DNA from: Phycisphaerales bacterium
GTDB lineage: Bacteria; Planctomycetota; Phycisphaerae; Phycisphaerales; UBA1924
Assembly (NCBI GenBank): GCA_029260295.1
Contig: JAJDDN010000003.1
Coordinates: forward strand, 124,001-188,000
Direction: 5' to 3'
DNA length: 64,000 nt
The notes below the pieces were generated by a model, which saw only the letters and a list, made by a program, of their open reading frames with translations, searched no databases and had not been told where the DNA came from. Below are positions 27,889-36,216 of this stretch, piece after piece. The first letter of the stretch is position 1, and the number at the start of each line of letters is the position of its first letter. Made by a program: the position numbers and the translations under genes.

Positions 27889-30456
27889 ATGATCAAAGAG
27901 ACCACCCTTGCCATGCTTTGCACCGGATTGCTATCCACCGGGCTCGCCATTGGCCAGCCCTCCGACCAGCCTGCAAATGATCCCGCTGAAAAAGAGATCG
28001 AGCCGCTGCTGGATTGGGGGGACCAGAAAGCTCCCAAACGCCAACCGCCTGTGATCAAACGAAGCGACCAAAGCAACACACGCGGAAAACGCGAACCAAT
28101 GGTGTCATTCGGAGCGTTCTCTGAACCCATCGAGCTGACCACGCTGATCGAATATGTCGGCACATCGCTCAACATCAACATCACCGTCAAGGGCGCACCC
28201 ACAGGCGAGATCACCTTCCACGCGCCCGTCCAGATTGCAAAAAGCAAACTCATCGACCTGCTCGACGCGATGCTCGAACAATATTCCTTCACGATCTCCC
28301 ATGAGCCGATCTCCAACTTCTGGATCGTCCAACCCATCTCCGATATCCGATCAACCCTGGGCTCAGACCGTGCCAGCACTCAGATTATTCCGACGCCCAA
28401 CATCAAGCCCTCGCTCATCAAGCCCGCGCTCGACGCAGCTCTTATCGGTGGCAACACCGCTAAAGCCAGCGGCAACTCGATCCAACCAGTCGACGAGCTC
28501 GGCGTACTGATCATCAACGCCCCACCTCGCGATATTCAGCGGATCCAAGAACTTGTTAATCAGCTCATCCAGATTGATGACGACCAGCGGTACATCCGCT
28601 TTGAACTTCTGCACCTAGCCGCACCGGTCGCCCTAGAACGCGCCGTCGGGCTCACCGGCGGGAACGCATCAGGCAACCAACGCTTGACAGCAAGTCCCGG
28701 GGGCGGGCAACCCAGTATCGGGCTTTCCTCGGCGTCGCTCTCCAACATGGCCGATCGAATCACCGTGGACCCGCAAGGCAACGCACTGATCTTCAAAGGC
28801 ACAGACTTCGAAATTGCCCGGGTCCAAGAAGTCCTCGATGTCATCGATGTCCCAAACACACTCGACCCCAAGAGCTACTTCGCAGGATCCTCAGCAGCAC
28901 AGATCGCCGACATCGCAAGAAACCGCGGGCTCGGCGAGGTCATCTCAATCGATGATCAGCAGCAGAACACCTTCGGGCAAACCAACATCAGAATCCAACA
29001 ACAGGGCGGGTTCCAGTCCCAGCAGTCATCAACCGCGACCGGTGGCCCGGTCATGGTCGTGGATACCACACGCGGCAACATCATCTACTACGGCACACCC
29101 GCACAGCAACAACAACTCGCCGACCTGCTCGTAGAACTCGGCACCGAAGATGAACGCATCGTCATCAAGGACTATGTCCTGAGCCACTCCGACGCCGAGA
29201 TCGTCGCCGAGCTCATGACCGCGATCATCACCGGCGAACAACGCACCGGCGATTCAGATTTCCTCCCAGGATCCACAGGTGGCGGCCGCGGGTCAACCCC
29301 GCAATCAGCCGCGAGGCTCTTTGGGAACAGCGGCGGCGGATCAGAAGTTTCAGCCGCGTTTGATCCTGATGTCGTCTCGGTGATCGCCGACCCAGATAAC
29401 AATCAAGTGCTCGTCACCGCTCCGATCAAGCAGCAAGACGAACTCGCCAAACTCATCGCAAGGCTCGACCGCCGCAAGGCGCAGGTATTCCTGCAGGCGT
29501 TGATTGTTTCGGTGTCAGACACAGAGAACTTCACGCTCGCCTTTGAGTCTCAGATCAACGCCGGTCAGTTCGGGCTCAACACAGGGAGCACCCTCTCTGG
29601 ATTGGCCGACACCGCGACCTTCGGCGATCTCAGAACAGTCAACCCCGGGCTCGCCGGGATGACCGCGGCCGTCATCATGACCAACCAGATCCCCATCATC
29701 ATCAACGCCAACCAGACCAACTCAGATGTCCGCATCCTCTCGGCCCCCCAACTCCTGGTCAACGATAACCAAGAAGCAACGATCGTTTCGCTCTCAGAGC
29801 AGCCCTTCCAGCAGATCACACCAAGCAACAGCGGCACCGTCGCCTCCTTCGGCGGATTCGAAGAAGCGGGTACTACTCTTACTGTCACACCATCCATCTC
29901 AGACGGCGGATTCCTCAGGCTCGACTACTTCGTTGAACTCTCAAACTTCACCGCAACCCAAGGCACCGATGGCTCCCCTCCTCCCCGCGACCGAAACACA
30001 ATCGAGGGCACCGCGACCATCCCAACAGACGCGACCATCGTCATCGGCGGAATCACCGTCGATAATGTCCGCGACACGGTCATCAAGGTCCCACTGCTCG
30101 GTGACATCCCGATTGTCGGCGAGCTGTTTAAAAACACAAGCAAGATCAACACCAAGTCCAAGCTCTATGTCTTCCTGACGCCGCGGATCATGACCGATCC
30201 AAACTTCATGGACCTCAAGCTGATGTCCGAAGGCCCGTATGCAGAAATGGAACTGGACCCACGCGTGCCAGATCTCCGAAGCGTATCAATCAACGCCTCG
30301 TCTGTTCTCAACACCGATCCAAACCAGAGCCCATTCGAAATGGACACCTCACCGCTCCCAAGCTCACCGGAACCCACCGATGGCTCCCCGACACTCTCGC
30401 CGGTACTCATCGATCCAAACACGGTCGGTTCAAACTCCAACCGGAACATGGATTAA
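27889..30456 (+). CDS. secretin (GspD/PilQ-type outer-membrane channel)
   Basis: A protein of 855 residues with signal peptide MIKETTLAMLCTGLLSTGLA. The periplasmic half has N-domain repeats (VGTSLNINITVKGAPTGEIT, SYFAGSSAAQIADIARNRGL, IVAELMTAIITGEQ). The secretin core spans about residues 525-770: DVRILSAPQLLVNDNQEATI, VASFGGFEEAGTTLTVTPSI and the diagnostic VPLLGDIPIVGELFK. A Ser/Pro-rich tail follows. Such proteins form the outer-membrane ring for type II secretion or type IV pili. The gene starts 4 bases before the ATPase gene end-to-start and is clearly co-transcribed with it. Longer in-frame starts exist but lack a signal peptide at the right place. Confidence 0.93.
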   Translation: MIKETTLAMLCTGLLSTGLAIGQPSDQPANDPAEKEIEPLLDWGDQKAPKRQPPVIKRSDQSNTRGKREPMVSFGAFSEPIELTTLIEYVGTSLNINITVKGAPTGEITFHAPVQIAKSKLIDLLDAMLEQYSFTISHEPISNFWIVQPISDIRSTLGSDRASTQIIPTPNIKPSLIKPALDAALIGGNTAKASGNSIQPVDELGVLIINAPPRDIQRIQELVNQLIQIDDDQRYIRFELLHLAAPVALERAVGLTGGNASGNQRLTASPGGGQPSIGLSSASLSNMADRITVDPQGNALIFKGTDFEIARVQEVLDVIDVPNTLDPKSYFAGSSAAQIADIARNRGLGEVISIDDQQQNTFGQTNIRIQQQGGFQSQQSSTATGGPVMVVDTTRGNIIYYGTPAQQQQLADLLVELGTEDERIVIKDYVLSHSDAEIVAELMTAIITGEQRTGDSDFLPGSTGGGRGSTPQSAARLFGNSGGGSEVSAAFDPDVVSVIADPDNNQVLVTAPIKQQDELAKLIARLDRRKAQVFLQALIVSVSDTENFTLAFESQINAGQFGLNTGSTLSGLADTATFGDLRTVNPGLAGMTAAVIMTNQIPIIINANQTNSDVRILSAPQLLVNDNQEATIVSLSEQPFQQITPSNSGTVASFGGFEEAGTTLTVTPSISDGGFLRLDYFVELSNFTATQGTDGSPPPRDRNTIEGTATIPTDATIVIGGITVDNVRDTVIKVPLLGDIPIVGELFKNTSKINTKSKLYVFLTPRIMTDPNFMDLKLMSEGPYAEMELDPRVPDLRSVSINASSVLNTDPNQSPFEMDTSPLPSSPEPTDGSPTLSPVLIDPNTVGSNSNRNMD

Positions 30457-30460
30457 CCGC

Positions 30461-32176
30461 ATGGGCAAATCAAACGGACTGATCAAACGAAACAAACCGG
30501 GTGCCTCAGGGCTCACCCGTGCCAAAGATGCGGCCCCCATCGTCGTTGACGCATGGGACGACGCGGCCCGCGCGCTGGGCCCGCTCAAACTCAGCGGCGA
30601 TCAGCTCAAAGCCTTCGCAGCAATCGACGGCTCAGACGACGAGCCCTGGGATGTGATGCTGCAGTCGATGGCAATCGACGAATCCAGTGCACTCAAGCTC
30701 CTCGCCGAACGCACCGGTCTGCCCTACCAGCAAGACCCGAAACTCTCAGAATCCGCCAGCCGGTTCTACGAACTCATTGACCCGGTCAAGGCACGGAGTG
30801 TGCAAGTCGCGTGCATCGAGCGCGAAGGCCCCGTCTACATACTCGCCACCTCACGCCCGATGCAACCCAGCGTGTTCACCATGCTCGAAGACGAGCTCGA
30901 CGCGCCCATCCGCATCGTCCTGTCTCCCAGAGCCGCCGTCGCCAACCTCATCAACCGTGGCTACGAACAACGCGGCGACCTCGTCACCGAAATCGTCGAA
31001 GACATCCCGCTGGATCAGTCCGCTATCGAATCCGCCGCAGGCGCGATCGGCAAAACCACCGACCTCCTCGCACAGGCCCGCCAGACGCCCGTCATCCGAC
31101 TCGTCAACATGATCCTCTTCGAAGCCCTCCGACGCGGCGCCTCCGATGTCCATGTCCACCCAATGGAAGAACGCCTCACCATCCGCCTCCGCATCGACGG
31201 CATGCTCGTCGACGCCTTCTCCCCACCACTCACCCTCGCCCCAGCGATCTCCTCGCGACTCAAAGTCATGACCGAGCTCGACATCGCCAACCGGCACGCC
31301 CCCCAAGACGGCCAGACCACCGTCCGCATCGGCTCAAAGAAAATCGACATCCGCCTTTCAGTCATCCCCACAATCTACGGCGAACGAATCGTCCTCCGCC
31401 TCCTTGATCAATCCAACCAAGAACTCGACCTCGACGCCGTCGGCATGGCCAAACCAATGCAGACCAAACTCATGGACTGCGTCGAGCGTCCCAACGGCAT
31501 CCTCCTCGTCACCGGACCAACCGGTTCAGGCAAAACAACCACGCTCTACGCCGCCCTCGGACGCATCGACCGCGACACCCGAAATGTCATGACCATCGAG
31601 GACCCCGTCGAATACCGCATGGACGGCATCTCACAGATGCAGGTCAATGTCAAACGACAGGTCACCTTCGCAACTGGTTTGCGATCACTCCTGCGCCAAG
31701 ACCCCGATGTGATTCTCGTCGGCGAAATCCGCGACCCAGAAACCGCACAACTCGCCATCCAAGCATCCCTCACCGGCCACTTCGTCCTGGCAACCCTCCA
31801 CACCAACGACGCCCCCAGCGCGATCCCCCGCCTGCTCGACATCGGCGTCGAACCCTACCTCGTCACCAGTTCGCTCTTGGGCGTCCTCGCCCAGCGTCTC
31901 ATGCGCCGCCTGTGCCCAACCTGCAACGGCTCGGGCCGCCACGAGGGCGAAAGCTGCGAAACCTGCTTCGGTTCAGGATACAAAGGCCGCCTCGCGGCCC
32001 ACGAACTCATGCTCATGAACGACACCCTCCGCCAGCTCACCTCAAAGCGAGCCGACGGCGTAACACTCTACGAAGCCGCCGTCGAATCCGGATTCGAACC
32101 CATGAAAATCGACGCGATGCGCAAGGTCAAAGAAGGCCTCACCGACGAAGCAGAAGTCTTCCGCGTCCTGCACTAA
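30461..32176 (+). CDS. GspE/PilB-type secretion ATPase
   Basis: A protein of 571 residues. The N-terminal MshEN-like domain (LLAERTGLPYQQDPKLSESA) is followed by the ATPase: Walker A GPTGSGKTTTLYA near residue 351, MTIEDPVEYRMDGISQMQVN, Walker B ILVGEIRDPETAQLA, the His box ATLHTNDAPSAIPRL, and the zinc-binding CPTCNG...CETCFGSGYKGR near 490. It powers pseudopilus or pilus assembly at the inner membrane. It begins 4 bases after the secretin gene. The last 35 bases are part of a 37-bp direct repeat that recurs at 34076, and a foreign-looking block is inserted directly after the stop codon. Confidence 0.95.
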   Translation: MGKSNGLIKRNKPGASGLTRAKDAAPIVVDAWDDAARALGPLKLSGDQLKAFAAIDGSDDEPWDVMLQSMAIDESSALKLLAERTGLPYQQDPKLSESASRFYELIDPVKARSVQVACIEREGPVYILATSRPMQPSVFTMLEDELDAPIRIVLSPRAAVANLINRGYEQRGDLVTEIVEDIPLDQSAIESAAGAIGKTTDLLAQARQTPVIRLVNMILFEALRRGASDVHVHPMEERLTIRLRIDGMLVDAFSPPLTLAPAISSRLKVMTELDIANRHAPQDGQTTVRIGSKKIDIRLSVIPTIYGERIVLRLLDQSNQELDLDAVGMAKPMQTKLMDCVERPNGILLVTGPTGSGKTTTLYAALGRIDRDTRNVMTIEDPVEYRMDGISQMQVNVKRQVTFATGLRSLLRQDPDVILVGEIRDPETAQLAIQASLTGHFVLATLHTNDAPSAIPRLLDIGVEPYLVTSSLLGVLAQRLMRRLCPTCNGSGRHEGESCETCFGSGYKGRLAAHELMLMNDTLRQLTSKRADGVTLYEAAVESGFEPMKIDAMRKVKEGLTDEAEVFRVLH

Positions 32177-32178
32177 AC
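32142..32178 (+). repeat. 37-bp direct repeat, left copy (gspE-like 3' end)
   Basis: Perfect 37-bp match to 34076-34112, running from the last 12 codons of the ATPase gene through its stop codon plus AC. It is the left boundary of the inserted block. Wider, imperfect similarity extends about 70 bases further upstream in both copies. Confidence 0.92.
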
Positions 32179-32199
32179 CAAGTTAGTTGCATCCTGAGA

Positions 32200-33135
32200 T
32201 TAGAACAGTATGGAACGCGCGACGCTTTCAGGTAAAACTGCCGTAATCCACGCTATCCATAATGGGGCACACATCATCACAAAACAACCAAACAACAACA
32301 ACAGAAACCCTACCCAGCGTTTTCTGGATCTTTTGAGTGCCTTGAAATCATGATTGTCTTTGCCACACTCAGGACAAACCGCCGCAGACTCACCAGCCCG
32401 TGAATACCCACACTCCCCGCAATATCCGAACCGCAACGCACCATCACTAGCGTATTTATTGAGTAGCAAATAACTACAACCCAAATACATAGTCACCCCC
32501 CCCAATGCTACTAATATTTGGGGAACTGTCTGCAATGCAACAGGGATCAAACCCGGCGATGTTGTCTGAAAGTATGCCAGCCCTTGGTTGACTACAAACT
32601 CGCTATTAATTGTATCCGCATAAAATATCCAGTACACTTTGACCCACAGCATCCATGCGAGATTGGATGCCAGTATTGATACCGACGCAATACTTGTTGC
32701 AAGAATCCATATTTTTAAAAATGCATGCCGGTATCTGACGCACTTGATCCAGGAAGCAATTGGCTCATTTTGCGATCTCAAGTAAATCAACACAAACTGG
32801 ATCGATACAAATGCAATTGCCGCTAGTTTACAAACAAATATACCAACTGACGGCAACCTTGTGCCCAACTGATCTTCCCACAACGAAAACGAACGACTTA
32901 TGGCCAACCTCATCCCTTGAGGCTGGCCATAATCAGGAAGTGGTACGCTTCCAAGAGGAACCTGGCCGTAAATCAGCATGCTTGCCATTTCAAGCGGCTC
33001 GTTAACAAGTGGCCAATATTCAGTCCCGAACGAAATCGATCCTGACGAATGCCCCGCGCCAAAAGATTTGACAACTGACACAGAACAAAGAAGACTGATG
33101 ACACATATCGCAATATATTGTAGTAACTTTGTCAT
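32200..33135 (-). CDS. zinc-ribbon membrane protein inside the insertion
   Basis: A protein of 311 residues if started at ATG 33135 (MTKLLQYIAICVISLLCSVS); longer in-frame starts give a poorer N-terminus. It has about six hydrophobic segments and a C-terminal CGECGYSRAG...CPECGKD zinc ribbon between the last two. The ribbon layout resembles that of the proteins at 12.2 and 48.2 kb. Base composition is clearly lower in GC than the neighbours, with many AAT, ATA and TTT codons. The function is unknown. Confidence 0.72.
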   Translation of the reverse strand: MTKLLQYIAICVISLLCSVSVVKSFGAGHSSGSISFGTEYWPLVNEPLEMASMLIYGQVPLGSVPLPDYGQPQGMRLAISRSFSLWEDQLGTRLPSVGIFVCKLAAIAFVSIQFVLIYLRSQNEPIASWIKCVRYRHAFLKIWILATSIASVSILASNLAWMLWVKVYWIFYADTINSEFVVNQGLAYFQTTSPGLIPVALQTVPQILVALGGVTMYLGCSYLLLNKYASDGALRFGYCGECGYSRAGESAAVCPECGKDNHDFKALKRSRKRWVGFLLLLFGCFVMMCAPLWIAWITAVLPESVARSILF

Positions 33136-33178
33136 CAGAATTTGATTTTCCAAATAAAACCACTTCGAACTAACGCCA

Positions 33179-33810
33179 TTATCGCGGATAACCAAGTGGA
33201 ATCTCGGACCCCCACCTAATATTAGCTGTGCCAGGAGGCGTTGCAGCACATGATTCACCTGGCAGCAGTGGACCATCTTGAGCCATCTCAAAGCCAGTGC
33301 TTATTTGGGTATCTGCACAATCCAAGCAAAAAAATGTTTTTCCCGTTGACACAACTGTCTTCGTTGATGGACGAGTCCAACGACATACTGGCCCACCAGC
33401 CAAATTTACAGTCATCGGAGGAGTCCAAGGGCCCGTAGGTGCATATGTAGGAACCGATACGCATACACATGGCCATTGGCAGTTTCTCTCTTGCGATAAA
33501 TCTACGCCAAAAGTCAATAATGATTCTGCCCGAGCGTATAAATCCCGAAGCATCATCATCATCGTGCTTCCATGCATATGTTGTAAATGCGTCCTGAAAC
33601 TTGTCATACTCGTGCCAAAGAAGGGACACATTCTGCCCCACCGTATTGGTTTCTGTCCAGGAAAGAAACCCGAGTACTTCTGAATCTCCCGCCACAGCAG
33701 GAGCGAATGCCCACCCAATGGTGTCAAACCGAACCGCGCTAATCTCTTGTGCTACAAGATTAGAGCAAGCCAGCATCAAGAAGCCAAGAAGCCAAGAAGC
33801 CGTTTTTCAT
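33179..33810 (-). pseudogene. broken or phase-variable lipoprotein gene
   Basis: From ATG 33810 the code reads MKNGFLASWLLDAGLL and stops at 33760, because three 8-bp units (GGCTTCTT on the coding strand) follow the third codon. With four units (or one) the frame would join to LMLACSNLVAQEISAVRFD, a good lipoprotein signal with an LMLAC lipobox. Downstream, the sequence reads well in one frame to about 33550 (IGWAFAPAVAGDSEVLGFLS) and then in another to the stop at 33179 (ARAESLLTFGVDLSQ, PTYAPTGPWTPPMTVNLAGG, ending SEIPLGYPR). So at least two frame changes separate it from a protein of about 195 residues. It is either a decaying gene or one controlled by repeat slippage. Confidence 0.55.
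33778..33801 (-). repeat. octanucleotide tandem repeat in a signal-peptide coding region
   Basis: Three perfect copies of AAGAAGCC on the plus strand (GGCTTCTT in the coding direction), starting 9 bases into the lipoprotein gene. Eight is not a multiple of three, so each gain or loss of one unit changes the frame. Confidence 0.85.
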
Positions 33811-33934
33811 AATGAATCTCCGTATTGAATGCCAATACCATATTGGACACAACTACATGCTAACAAACTATTTTATGTTTGTCAAATCTCAGAATACCCC
33901 TACTATCTATTATCTCTCAAGCCCCCACATGCCC

Positions 33935-33997
33935 AAAAGCACGCTCCTCCTGCCAGTACTGGCGGGGGGGGGGGCAACAATGAGGAGCATGGCTTCA
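33935..33997 (+). repeat. hairpin repeat E1 with an 11-base G run
   Basis: Matches 34735-34790: AAAAGCACGC, a C-rich arm, a G-rich arm, then GGGGGCAA and AATGAGGAGCAYGGCTTCA. In this copy the G-rich arm contains 11 consecutive G (33964-33974). It lies between the broken lipoprotein gene and the copied gspE end. Confidence 0.7.
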
Positions 33998-34005
33998 GCC
34001 GCGGT

Positions 34006-34112
34006 CGAATCCGGGTTCGAATCCGGGTTCGAATCCATGCAGATCGACGCCATGCGGAAGGTCAAGCAAGGCTGGCCGACGAAGCAGAAGTCTTCCGCGT
34101 CCTGCACTAAAC
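34006..34112 (+). pseudogene. duplicated 3' end of the GspE-like gene
   Basis: About 105 bases similar to the end of the ATPase gene: it encodes VESGFESGFESMQIDAMRKV and then, with one small frame change, the end DEAEVFRVLH plus stop. The last 37 bases are identical to 32142-32178. A 12-base unit (GAATCCGGGTTC) is repeated within it, giving the doubled SGFE. It is a fragment, not a functional gene. Confidence 0.85.
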
Positions 34113-34148
34113 TCGTAGATGCCCAGCTCACACAACCGACTCAACCCG

Positions 34149-34724
34149 ATGGCCGTTGCCCCTGTCACACTCTCCAACACCATCGTCACCCTCGAACCCA
34201 TCGCCCTGACGCACGCCGATGACTTCGTTGACGCCATGGACGACTCCGTCTTCGCCTACATGCCCATGCGGTCATCCGTCCGCACCAAAAACGAAGTCCG
34301 CCGCTACATCGAGTTCCAGATGGCTCGCCCAAGCACCATCGTCTTCACCGTCATCGACAACGCAACCAACCGCGCCATCGGATCCACCAGCTACATGAAC
34401 ATCCGCCCCGACCACCACGGCCTCGAAATCGGATCCACCTGGATCACCACCCCCGCCCGAGGCACCAAGATCAACCCCGCAATGAAACACCTCATGCTCA
34501 AGCACGCATTCGAGGAACTCAACGCGATCCGCGTCGAGCTCAAGACCGATGCCCGCAACGCGCAATCACGCGCGGCAATTCTGAAACTCGGCGCTGAGTT
34601 CGAAGGCATCCTCCGCAACCACATCATCATGCCCGACGGGCACCTCCGAGGCTCAGCAACATACTCCATCACCCCAGATCAATGGCCAGCAATCAGCGAG
34701 CAACTCCTCGAACGCATCGGATAA
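34149..34724 (+). CDS. GNAT-family N-acetyltransferase
   Basis: A protein of 191 residues of the Acetyltransf_3/RimJ type: NTIVTLEPIALTHADDFVDA, TNRAIGSTSYMNIRPDHHGL, IGSTWITTPARGTKINPAMK, LNAIRVELKTDARNAQSRAA and AILKLGAEFEGILRNHIIMP. The last motif is the usual acetyl-CoA end of the family. The target is unknown. ATG 34149 is preferred over 34119, which starts inside the duplicated gspE tail region. The gene lies between hairpin repeats E1 and E2 and has normal GC content. Confidence 0.9.
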   Translation: MAVAPVTLSNTIVTLEPIALTHADDFVDAMDDSVFAYMPMRSSVRTKNEVRRYIEFQMARPSTIVFTVIDNATNRAIGSTSYMNIRPDHHGLEIGSTWITTPARGTKINPAMKHLMLKHAFEELNAIRVELKTDARNAQSRAAILKLGAEFEGILRNHIIMPDGHLRGSATYSITPDQWPAISEQLLERIG

Positions 34725-34731
34725 GCAGTTT

Positions 34732-34790
34732 AAAAAAAGCACGCCCCCGCCTGTGGGAGCAGGCGGGGGCAATGAGGAGCACGGCTTCAA
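34732..34790 (-). terminator. hairpin repeat E2, terminator for aroC
   Basis: A perfect 11-bp stem GCCCCCGCCTG/CAGGCGGGGGC with loop TGGGAG (34743-34770). On the minus strand it is followed by GTGCTTTTTTT, so it should end transcription coming from aroC. The same element as E1 at 33935, with conserved flanks AAAAGCACGC and AATGAGGAGCACGGCTTCA. The 205 bases between it and aroC hold nothing recognisable. Confidence 0.75.
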
Positions 34791-34995: not shown

Positions 34996-36216
34996 TCAGG
35001 CAATGACCGTATCCGGGTTGCCCCCGGCCAGATCGATCGGAAGCGTCCGCGCGACATCAAGGAACGCATCAAAGTTCCCCCGCGTCTCGATCACACTGTC
35101 GCCCCCAAACTTATCCATGAACGCCGCCGCGACCTCGAAGGCCACCACATTCTCCATCACCACACTCGCCGCCGACACCGCACAGATGTCGCTCCGCTCG
35201 TACTGCGAGTCCTCGGGCTTCTTCGTGTTGAGATCAACACTCGGCAACCCCTTGAGCAGCGTCGCGATCGGTTTCATCGTCCCGGTCACCACGATCGGCT
35301 GCCCGTTGGTCATCCCGCCTTCTAGACCACCCGCGTTATTCGACGACCGCACAAACCCAAGTGATGGCGTATTGATCTTGGACGAATCAAACGCGATCGG
35401 ATCATGAAGCTTCGACCCAAGCCGCTTGGAACACTCCGCCCCCAGCCCAACACCCACGGCCTTGAACGCCTGGATCCCCATCACCGCACCGGCAATCCGC
35501 GAGTCCAGCTTCTCATACCAGTTCATCGAAGAACCAATCCCGGGAGGGCAGTTAAACACATGGCACTCCACATCCCCACCCACCGTGTCCTTATCCGACT
35601 TGGTCTGCCGAATGATGGCACACTGTTTGTCAGTCGTCGCAGGATCGAGTGTGTAGGTCGCCGATTCATCACGATTCATAATGAGTTCGCTCATCGTCTC
35701 GTGCGTCACCACCATGTCAGTCTGCGCATCAAGAATCGAACGCACAAAGCCAAAGACATCCACATCGAATATCTGCTTGAGCATCAGCCGCCCGATGCAG
35801 CACGCCGCCACCCGCGCCGCCGTCTCGCGCGCACTAGCCCGTTCGAGTGTTTCCCGGCAATCAGTAGTCAGCCATTTGATCGACCCCGCCAGATCCGCAT
35901 GCCCAGGCCTCGGCCGGTACACCGGAGGCGTGGCTTCAAGATCATCGAGCCGCGAGTCGCGGTTTTTAACCAACATCGTGATCGGCGCCCCGATGGACTT
36001 TCCGAGCCGGACCCCGGTAAGGATCTCGACAGTGTCGGTCTCAAGCTTCTGGCGTCCGCCCCGCCCGTACCCGCCCTGGCGTCGGGCGAGCTCGCGGTTG
36101 ATGATCTCCGTATCGATCTCCACCCCCGCCGGGACCCCGAGAACAGTGGCGACGAGGGACGGCCCGTGGGATTCACCGGCGGTCTGGTACGAGAGTCTTT
36201 GAGCGTGTGGTGTCAT
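34996..36216 (-). CDS. aroC: chorismate synthase
   Basis: A protein of 406 residues. It makes chorismate from 5-enolpyruvylshikimate 3-phosphate using reduced FMN, the last step of the shikimate pathway. Family signatures are YQTAGESHGPSLVATVLGVP at the start, GYGRGGRQKLETDTVEILTG, RPGHADLAGSIKW, ERASARETAARVAACCIGRL, and GGLEGGMTNGQPIVVTGTMK. The start chosen is the natural one and the length is normal for longer AroC types. It is downstream of the spermidine-synthase-like gene on the same strand, 40 bases away; the pathway partner pheA lies at 43-44 kb. Confidence 0.97.
   Translation of the reverse strand: MTPHAQRLSYQTAGESHGPSLVATVLGVPAGVEIDTEIINRELARRQGGYGRGGRQKLETDTVEILTGVRLGKSIGAPITMLVKNRDSRLDDLEATPPVYRPRPGHADLAGSIKWLTTDCRETLERASARETAARVAACCIGRLMLKQIFDVDVFGFVRSILDAQTDMVVTHETMSELIMNRDESATYTLDPATTDKQCAIIRQTKSDKDTVGGDVECHVFNCPPGIGSSMNWYEKLDSRIAGAVMGIQAFKAVGVGLGAECSKRLGSKLHDPIAFDSSKINTPSLGFVRSSNNAGGLEGGMTNGQPIVVTGTMKPIATLLKGLPSVDLNTKKPEDSQYERSDICAVSAASVVMENVVAFEVAAAFMDKFGGDSVIETRGNFDAFLDVARTLPIDLAGGNPDTVIA

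What the first reader, a model, noticed from the sequence alone, without database searches (positions are those of the whole stretch)
32142..34112. 1.9-kb block inserted exactly at the 3' end of the secretion ATPase gene, bounded by a 37-bp direct repeat
The last 12 codons plus stop codon of the ATPase gene are copied perfectly (37 bp) 1.9 kb downstream, with looser similarity over about 105 bp. The block between is visibly AT-richer and carries two genes unlike their neighbours. This is how site-specific integrated elements restore the gene they enter, but no integrase is visible, so it may be a non-autonomous element or a new kind of gene-end integration.
Basis: partly seen in the sequence, partly recalled or inferred. 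Interest (0 to 1): 0.78.

Follow-up and report, generated by a model that had tools for sequence, protein, structure and literature searches.

The report
Stacked insert behind secretion ATPase gene
In a bacterium related to uncultured planctomycetes, extra genes sit between a secretion-motor gene and an older copy of that gene's last 105 bases, most simply because two versions of the same chromosomal spot were joined end to end; it is a small, neat case of how bacteria may add genes without a dedicated mobile element.

Summary
The repeat is real: the last 105 bp of gspE (32072-32176) recur at 34006-34110, with 37 bp exact, around a 47% G+C block. The rest changes. (1) The block's right end looks like host locus DNA, not element DNA: 33935-33997 is a diverged copy of the terminator-like sequence that follows GNAT, abutting the old gspE tail. 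(2) The gspE-GNAT gap is a variable slot: 9-41 bp in 6 of 14 genus members, ~540 bp in 4, 1.7-2.4 kb in 4. (3) Relative G005 has gspE, a PEP-CTERM-like ORF, a degraded gspE tail, then relatives of both block genes; each half occurs without the other elsewhere. (4) G147, of another genus, independently has a 143-bp gspE tail copy around a 1.6-kb block with one glycosyltransferase-like gene. (5) No integrase was found near. Best explanation: two versions of the locus were stacked by host recombination, leaving the old gspE end as a stub, much as proposed for T6SS immunity arrays. A decayed e14- or CIME-like element is the main rival. 2 of 98 scanned family gspE loci show a strong tail copy.

The parts
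30239..32176 (+). gspE, type II/IV secretion ATPase (start codon mechanical, the true start is probably later); its last 105 bp (32072-32176) are copy 1
   Evidence: T2SSE PF00437 E 1.7e-127; repeat
32200..33135 (-). orfA, 311-aa protein, membrane protein by my reading, with a C-terminal CxxC...CxxC zinc-ribbon-like motif; relatives at E <= 1e-8 only in G000 and G005 of 163 family genomes
   Evidence: no curated family above its cut-off in Pfam/NCBIfam (scanned with the longer 363-aa reading); no match in viral, plasmid or phage collections
33179..33779 (-). orfB, broken gene; two frames match one G005 protein (limits are those of the mechanical ORFs)
   Evidence: tblastn of the G005 fragment: residues 140-265 in frame -1 (E 1e-23) and 2-35 in frame -3 (E 1e-9); ORFs
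33935..33997 (+). diverged copy of the terminator-like sequence that follows the GNAT gene; right end of the block
   Evidence: aligned to 34735-34789, score 44 against a maximum of 27 in 500 shuffles
33998..34112 (+). copy 2 of the gspE 3' end (stub); clear alignment from 34006; abuts the terminator copy and, downstream, the ancestral-type GNAT flank
34119..34724 (+). GNAT-family acetyltransferase, direct neighbour of gspE in empty-site relatives
   Evidence: PF13302 E 1e-17; next to gspE in 6 genus members
34735..34789 (+). terminator-like sequence between GNAT and the next gene, with matches in G001, G004, G006, G017 and G019; a 24-base core occurs once in the genome at up to 3 mismatches
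34996..36216 (-). conserved right neighbour, chorismate synthase by my reading (this ORF was not scanned against a family library)

Best explanation
Two alternative versions of one locus were joined head to tail. One version read gspE-orfA-orfB-terminator, the other gspE-GNAT-terminator. Recombination in the shared gspE sequence, or unequal crossing between the two versions, placed the first in front of the second, with an illegitimate right-hand junction that fell about 105 bp before the old gspE stop. gspE stays whole, the new genes lie behind it, and the old gspE end and GNAT remain as stub and neighbour. No dedicated recombinase is needed. Shown: the order of parts, both duplicated flanks, empty sites, a parallel case in G147, and relatives that carry one half without the other. 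Inferred: DNA exchange between strains as the source, and RecA-type recombination as the agent.
For: The block ends in a copy of the locus's own right-hand terminator-like sequence directly next to the old gspE tail, i.e. terminator|tail, the junction expected of head-to-tail joining. Copy 2 runs into a sequence that resembles, by eye, what follows gspE in empty-site relatives. Copy 2 differs 13.5% from copy 1 and from G001 and 18-24% from the 9 other relatives compared, so it belongs to this lineage. In G005 a degraded tail (score 6.7; one unrelated position among 3.1 million scanned scores as high) stands between a PEP-CTERM-like ORF (my reading) and orfA/orfB relatives. gspE followed directly by a PEP-CTERM-like ORF, without orfA or a tail copy, occurs in G009 and G014 (in G002 a further small ORF lies between); tail-orfA-orfB without PEP-CTERM is in G000. 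G001, G013 and G016 have gspE and chorismate synthase with no GNAT match between, as the proposed first version needs. In G147 copy 1 has foreign-looking last codons and copy 2 the last sense codons of its empty relative G148. A similar scheme is proposed in print for T6SS immunity arrays (PMC5361080, passages).
Against: The pure version gspE-orfA-orfB-terminator was not found in any genome searched. The terminator copy looks more diverged than G001's terminator and does not resemble it more closely (by eye). In homology-facilitated illegitimate recombination the usual outcome, as I recall it, is insertion with deletion. G147's 119/120 identity over the 5' part of the repeat needs a donor of the same species or later gene conversion. 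The G005 tail is short and degraded. The codon-position pattern of the copy differences is inconclusive (7 of 14 at third positions, p 0.15).
Confidence: 0.5

Rival explanations
1. A decayed or non-autonomous site-specific element (CIME- or e14-like) that integrates at the gspE 3' end and supplies the last codons, moved by an integrase in trans.
For: Repeat at a gene end, gene kept whole, AT-rich rare cargo and empty sites. In G147 four synonymous differences lie in the last 16 bp of copy 1, where copy 2 has the sense codons of empty-site G148, as when an element supplies the end; e14 leaves a 163-bp icd stub (PMC6379469 passages). Any crossover window common to G000 and G147 would lie about 16-37 bp before the stop (inference). 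Four tyrosine-recombinase hits exist elsewhere in G000 and five serine-recombinase hits in G147.
Against: No relative of the genome's four tyrosine recombinases in the window or 98 gspE loci (tblastn, E <= 1e-3). Repeat length varies and no shared block-end sequence is seen by eye. The right end of the block is host terminator-like DNA. The G000 and G147 cargos are different genes.
Confidence: 0.3
2. A local tandem duplication of gspE tail to terminator, followed by loss of GNAT from the first unit and of orfA/orfB from the second.
For: Terminator|tail junction. Zinc-ribbon-type ORFs stand in twos and threes in the same slot in G002, G009 and G014 (my reading), and G005 has two orfA relatives that share a stretch by eye. 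Short repeats are common in parts of this genome.
Against: Needs complementary losses; the block's DNA has no match in relatives except 65 bp in G005, so no GNAT remnant is seen; orfA and orfB have no match in G001, G004 or G006.
Confidence: 0.15
3. A chance repeat or an assembly error.
For: The genome is not closed (8 contigs, 92% complete).
Against: Score far above shuffles; the copies are diverged, so not an assembly duplicate; independent parallel in the one-contig genome G147.
Confidence: 0.02

Closest known systems
Displacement arrays of T6SS effector-immunity modules in Vibrio cholerae (proposed homology-facilitated illegitimate recombination; PMC5361080, passages read)
   Same: Anchor in a conserved gene part, new genes added directly behind it, an older 3' end and its neighbour shifted back, no integrase known.
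   Different: There the anchor gene is an effector whose 3' part is replaced and the cargo is toxin/immunity; here gspE is complete and its encoded end unchanged, and the cargo is unrelated to it.
e14 prophage in icd of E. coli (PMC6379469, passages read)
   Same: The insert supplies the gene's 3' end and leaves a stub of similar length (163 bp) at the far side; G147 fits closely.
   Different: e14 is a prophage of about 15 kb with its own recombination genes (the latter recalled); here the blocks are 1.6-1.9 kb and none was found in them.
CIME, cis-mobilizable element (PMC5704250, passages read)
   Same: No integration or transfer genes found, flanked by repeats at a gene end.
   Different: No related ICE or IME with the same ends was found; the right end is host locus DNA.

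Membership tests
CIME / decayed site-specific integrated element | attL and attR that match a related integrase-bearing element | tested here: inconclusive
   No relative of the genome's four tyrosine recombinases in 98 family gspE loci or the window; a Pfam scan of 130 of 264 neighbouring ORFs listed only 25 of 107 families, none a recombinase; orfA has no match in viral, plasmid or phage collections
CIME / decayed site-specific integrated element | flanking direct repeat at a gene end with an empty site in relatives | tested here: met
CIME / decayed site-specific integrated element | excision to a circle | not testable with these tools
   no reads available
e14-like gene-end integration | element supplies the terminal codons and the displaced end lies at the far side | tested here: inconclusive
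   met in G147 by comparison with G148; in G000 the last 35 bp of both copies are identical, so undecidable
e14-like gene-end integration | own integrase/excisionase | tested here: not met
   none found in the block: its ORFs have no recombinase family match and no tblastn match to the genome's tyrosine recombinases
Displacement stacking by one-sided homology | both half-arrangements exist separately in relatives | tested here: inconclusive
   gspE-GNAT alone: 6 of 14 genus members; gspE-PEP-CTERM-like without orfA: G009, G014; gspE-orfA-orfB-terminator without GNAT: not found
Displacement stacking by one-sided homology | stub of the old gene end directly left of its old neighbour | tested here: met
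Integron cassette array | integron integrase next to cassettes separated by attC sites | tested here: not met
   no tyrosine-recombinase hit on contig C3; the repeat is a gspE coding end

The most novel reading that the evidence does not exclude
The 3' end of gspE in this planctomycete-related family is a dedicated integration site for tiny integrase-free elements that are moved in trans, supply the last codons and can stack: a cassette-like system anchored on a secretion-motor gene.
Probability: 0.15. Interest if true: 0.7.

Novelty: new member of a known kind. Interest (0 to 1): 0.42.

Why it matters
It shows, in bacteria far from the usual models, how a conserved gene end can act as an anchor for adding rare genes while the anchor stays intact, and it leaves a stub that records the order of events. 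If a dedicated recombinase were behind the recurrence at gspE (two clear cases and one possible), it would be a new small cassette system.

Tried and rejected
Exact 37 bp as an att core: dropped, since the end of gspE varies little in the relatives compared. A four-copy repeat behind gspE in G056: dockerin-like coding repeats, by reading. Repeat clusters elsewhere in G000: those read were palindromic intergenic repeats and PEP-CTERM- or dockerin-like tails. Weak protein-level hits in G020, G153, G202 and others: taken as chance; the G020 one lies in its GNAT gene by my reading. Weak DNA hit in G190 (score 41 against a shuffle maximum of 33): not settled. Donor of the G147 codons: besides G147 itself no family genome within 1 mismatch, best 2. 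G147 cargo behind another gspE: its two other family relatives lie on other contigs than gspE. Fold of orfA: mean pLDDT 42, not used.

Limits of the counts: the 98 gspE loci are those of 163 family genomes whose tail could be placed and was fetched; G169 was fetched and dropped because its tail was not found; several loci stop early at contig ends. In the 697-ORF control, 11 ORFs other than gspE had a repeated tail: 2 in CRISPR-like arrays, 3 PEP-CTERM-like and 1 dockerin-like by reading, 3 with matches of only 19-23 bp, and 2 on G000 contig C3 that were not translated (they overlap repeat pairs of the PEP-CTERM-like group).
Full report
Setting. The window lies at G000:C3:124001-188000 of a 2.9-Mb genome. 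The six closest relatives of its GNAT gene (68-71% identity) come from records titled Phycisphaerales (3), Planctomycetota (1) or just bacterium (2). The gene with the repeat is a secretion ATPase, gspE (PF00437, E 1.7e-127), after a secretin-like gene (my reading).

Observation. The gspE 3' end occurs a second time 1.9 kb downstream. The alignment scores 135 against at most 30 in 200 shuffles. Copy 2 has a 12-bp tandem duplication (by reading) and a one-base loss, so it is a stub. The interval is 47% G+C, the last 1200 bp of gspE 62%. The exactness of the 37 bp is not evidence of an att core: the same end is conserved in 7 relatives compared, and the 5'/3' difference is not significant (Fisher p 0.13).

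Block content. orfA (32200-33135, minus) is a 311-aa protein, by my reading a membrane protein with a C-terminal zinc-ribbon-like motif; G005 has a 33% identical protein. No curated family passed its cut-off, there was no PHROG at E 0.1, and no match in plasmids, phages or viral contigs. A model from two sequences had mean pLDDT 42 and was not used. orfB is broken: parts of one G005 protein match in two frames. Left of copy 2, at 33935-33997, lies a diverged copy of the terminator-like sequence that follows GNAT (34735-34789): score 44, maximum 27 in 500 shuffles. A 24-base core of that sequence occurs once in the genome at up to 3 mismatches without gaps.

The slot in the genus. In 14 genus members with gspE and GNAT on one contig, the gap from the gspE stop to the start of GNAT similarity is 9-41 bp in 6 (G003, G004, G006, G008, G010, G017), 537-545 bp in 4 (G012, G015, G019, G020) and 1.7-2.4 kb in 4 (G000, G002, G009, G014). 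In the seven filled gaps other than G000's I read zinc-ribbon-type ORFs on the minus strand, and in G002, G009 and G014 also a PEP-CTERM-like ORF on the plus strand. G001, G013 and G016 have no GNAT match between gspE and chorismate synthase; G005 is split over two contigs; G018's contig ends 609 bp after gspE. G011 gave no gspE match and G007's weaker match was not fetched. On a gspE tree G000 pairs with G001 (support 100/98) and lies with the empty G004/G006 (86/64). In the empty G004, G006 and G017 the bases after the gspE stop resemble those after copy 2 by eye: copy 2 looks like the ancestral gspE-GNAT junction.

Parallels. G005 reads gspE, PEP-CTERM-like ORF, a degraded gspE end, an orfA relative, an orfB relative, contig end. 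Another contig (L045, taken to be G005 C107 by contig number and position) begins inside another orfA relative just before GNAT. The degraded end scores 6.7 on a tail matrix; among 3.1 million scanned positions one unrelated position scores as high, so it is suggestive, not proven. In another genus, G147 has 143 bp of its gspE end again 1616 bp after the stop (138/143 identical: 119/120, then 19/23), around a 53% G+C block (gspE 68%) with one gene of the PMT_2 glycosyltransferase family. G148 (93.5-96.5% identical DNA around it) has no match to the block and has copy 2's last sense codons, with another stop codon; the next 100-250 bp do not align well. Copy 1 has four synonymous differences in its last 16 bp. 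Of 98 family loci scanned, 2 (G000, G147) have a strong tail copy; a separate tail-model search of 163 genomes listed the same two pairs, its list being cut off.

Controls. Among 929 kb in 113 loci (many of them gspE neighbourhoods, some overlapping), 29 repeat pairs passed; 17 come from G056's dockerin-like coding repeats, and the only other pairs of 100 bp or more are the two gspE tails. In 864 kb of contiguous G147 and G000 sequence and the window, 45 pairs passed, 9 of them 100 bp or more: the gspE tail, four read as palindromic or dockerin-like repeats, one that overlaps PEP-CTERM-like paralogues, and three not identified (185 and 109 bp in G147, which overlap each other; 543 bp in G000). 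So repeats as such are not rare here; a stray gene end is what is unusual. Of 697 ORFs in 879 kb, 13 had a tail repeated within 5 kb downstream: the two gspE genes and 11 others, broken down in Tried and rejected.

Recombinases. Four Phage_integrase hits in G000, none on contig C3; no serine recombinase hit in G000 or G005, five in G147, the nearest more than 100 kb away; no relative of the four in the window or 98 loci at E <= 1e-3. A Pfam scan of 130 of 264 neighbouring ORFs showed no recombinase among the 25 of 107 families listed; single recombinases could be hidden in the rest.

Interpretation. The order gspE-orfA-orfB-terminator|gspE end-GNAT-terminator is what head-to-tail joining of two versions of one locus gives. 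G005 looks like the same thing with other halves. For T6SS arrays a related scheme is in print (PMC5361080, passages); transformation is also known to make merodiploids by alternative pairing (PMC3784515, passages). The main rival is a decayed site-specific element; the codon replacement in G147 and the precedents of e14 (PMC6379469, passages) and CIMEs (PMC5704250, passages) speak for it. The lack of a visible integrase, differing repeat length, host DNA at the block's right end and no shared ends by eye speak against. The data do not settle it.

Novelty. Searches for gspE with attachment site, genomic island and integrase (one paper in the listing, not read) and for Planctomycetes with islands, gene ends or direct repeats (listing only) showed no title or abstract start that reports this in the open-access library; most subscription papers are not held.

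Noticed in passing
L064 10767-10811 (G015, minus strand): In G015 the gspE gene has an in-frame TAA about ten codons before its usual end.
   Followed up: no
G147:C1 about 140-144 kb (L201-L202): A long array of ~36-bp near-exact repeats at ~71-bp spacing, CRISPR-like.
   Followed up: no
G000:C3 216-257 kb and C2 23-32, 166-178 kb (L226-L228, L230, L237): Clusters of repeats of 40-100 bp, those read being mostly palindromic and intergenic-looking.
   Followed up: partly
L127 (G056): Successive secreted-protein-like genes behind gspE share a ~190-bp dockerin-like coding end.
   Followed up: partly
L056 end and L045 start (G005 C44, C107): Two orfA relatives share a stretch of about 65 bp by eye at which the assembly appears to break, suggesting recent duplication in the slot.
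   Followed up: partly
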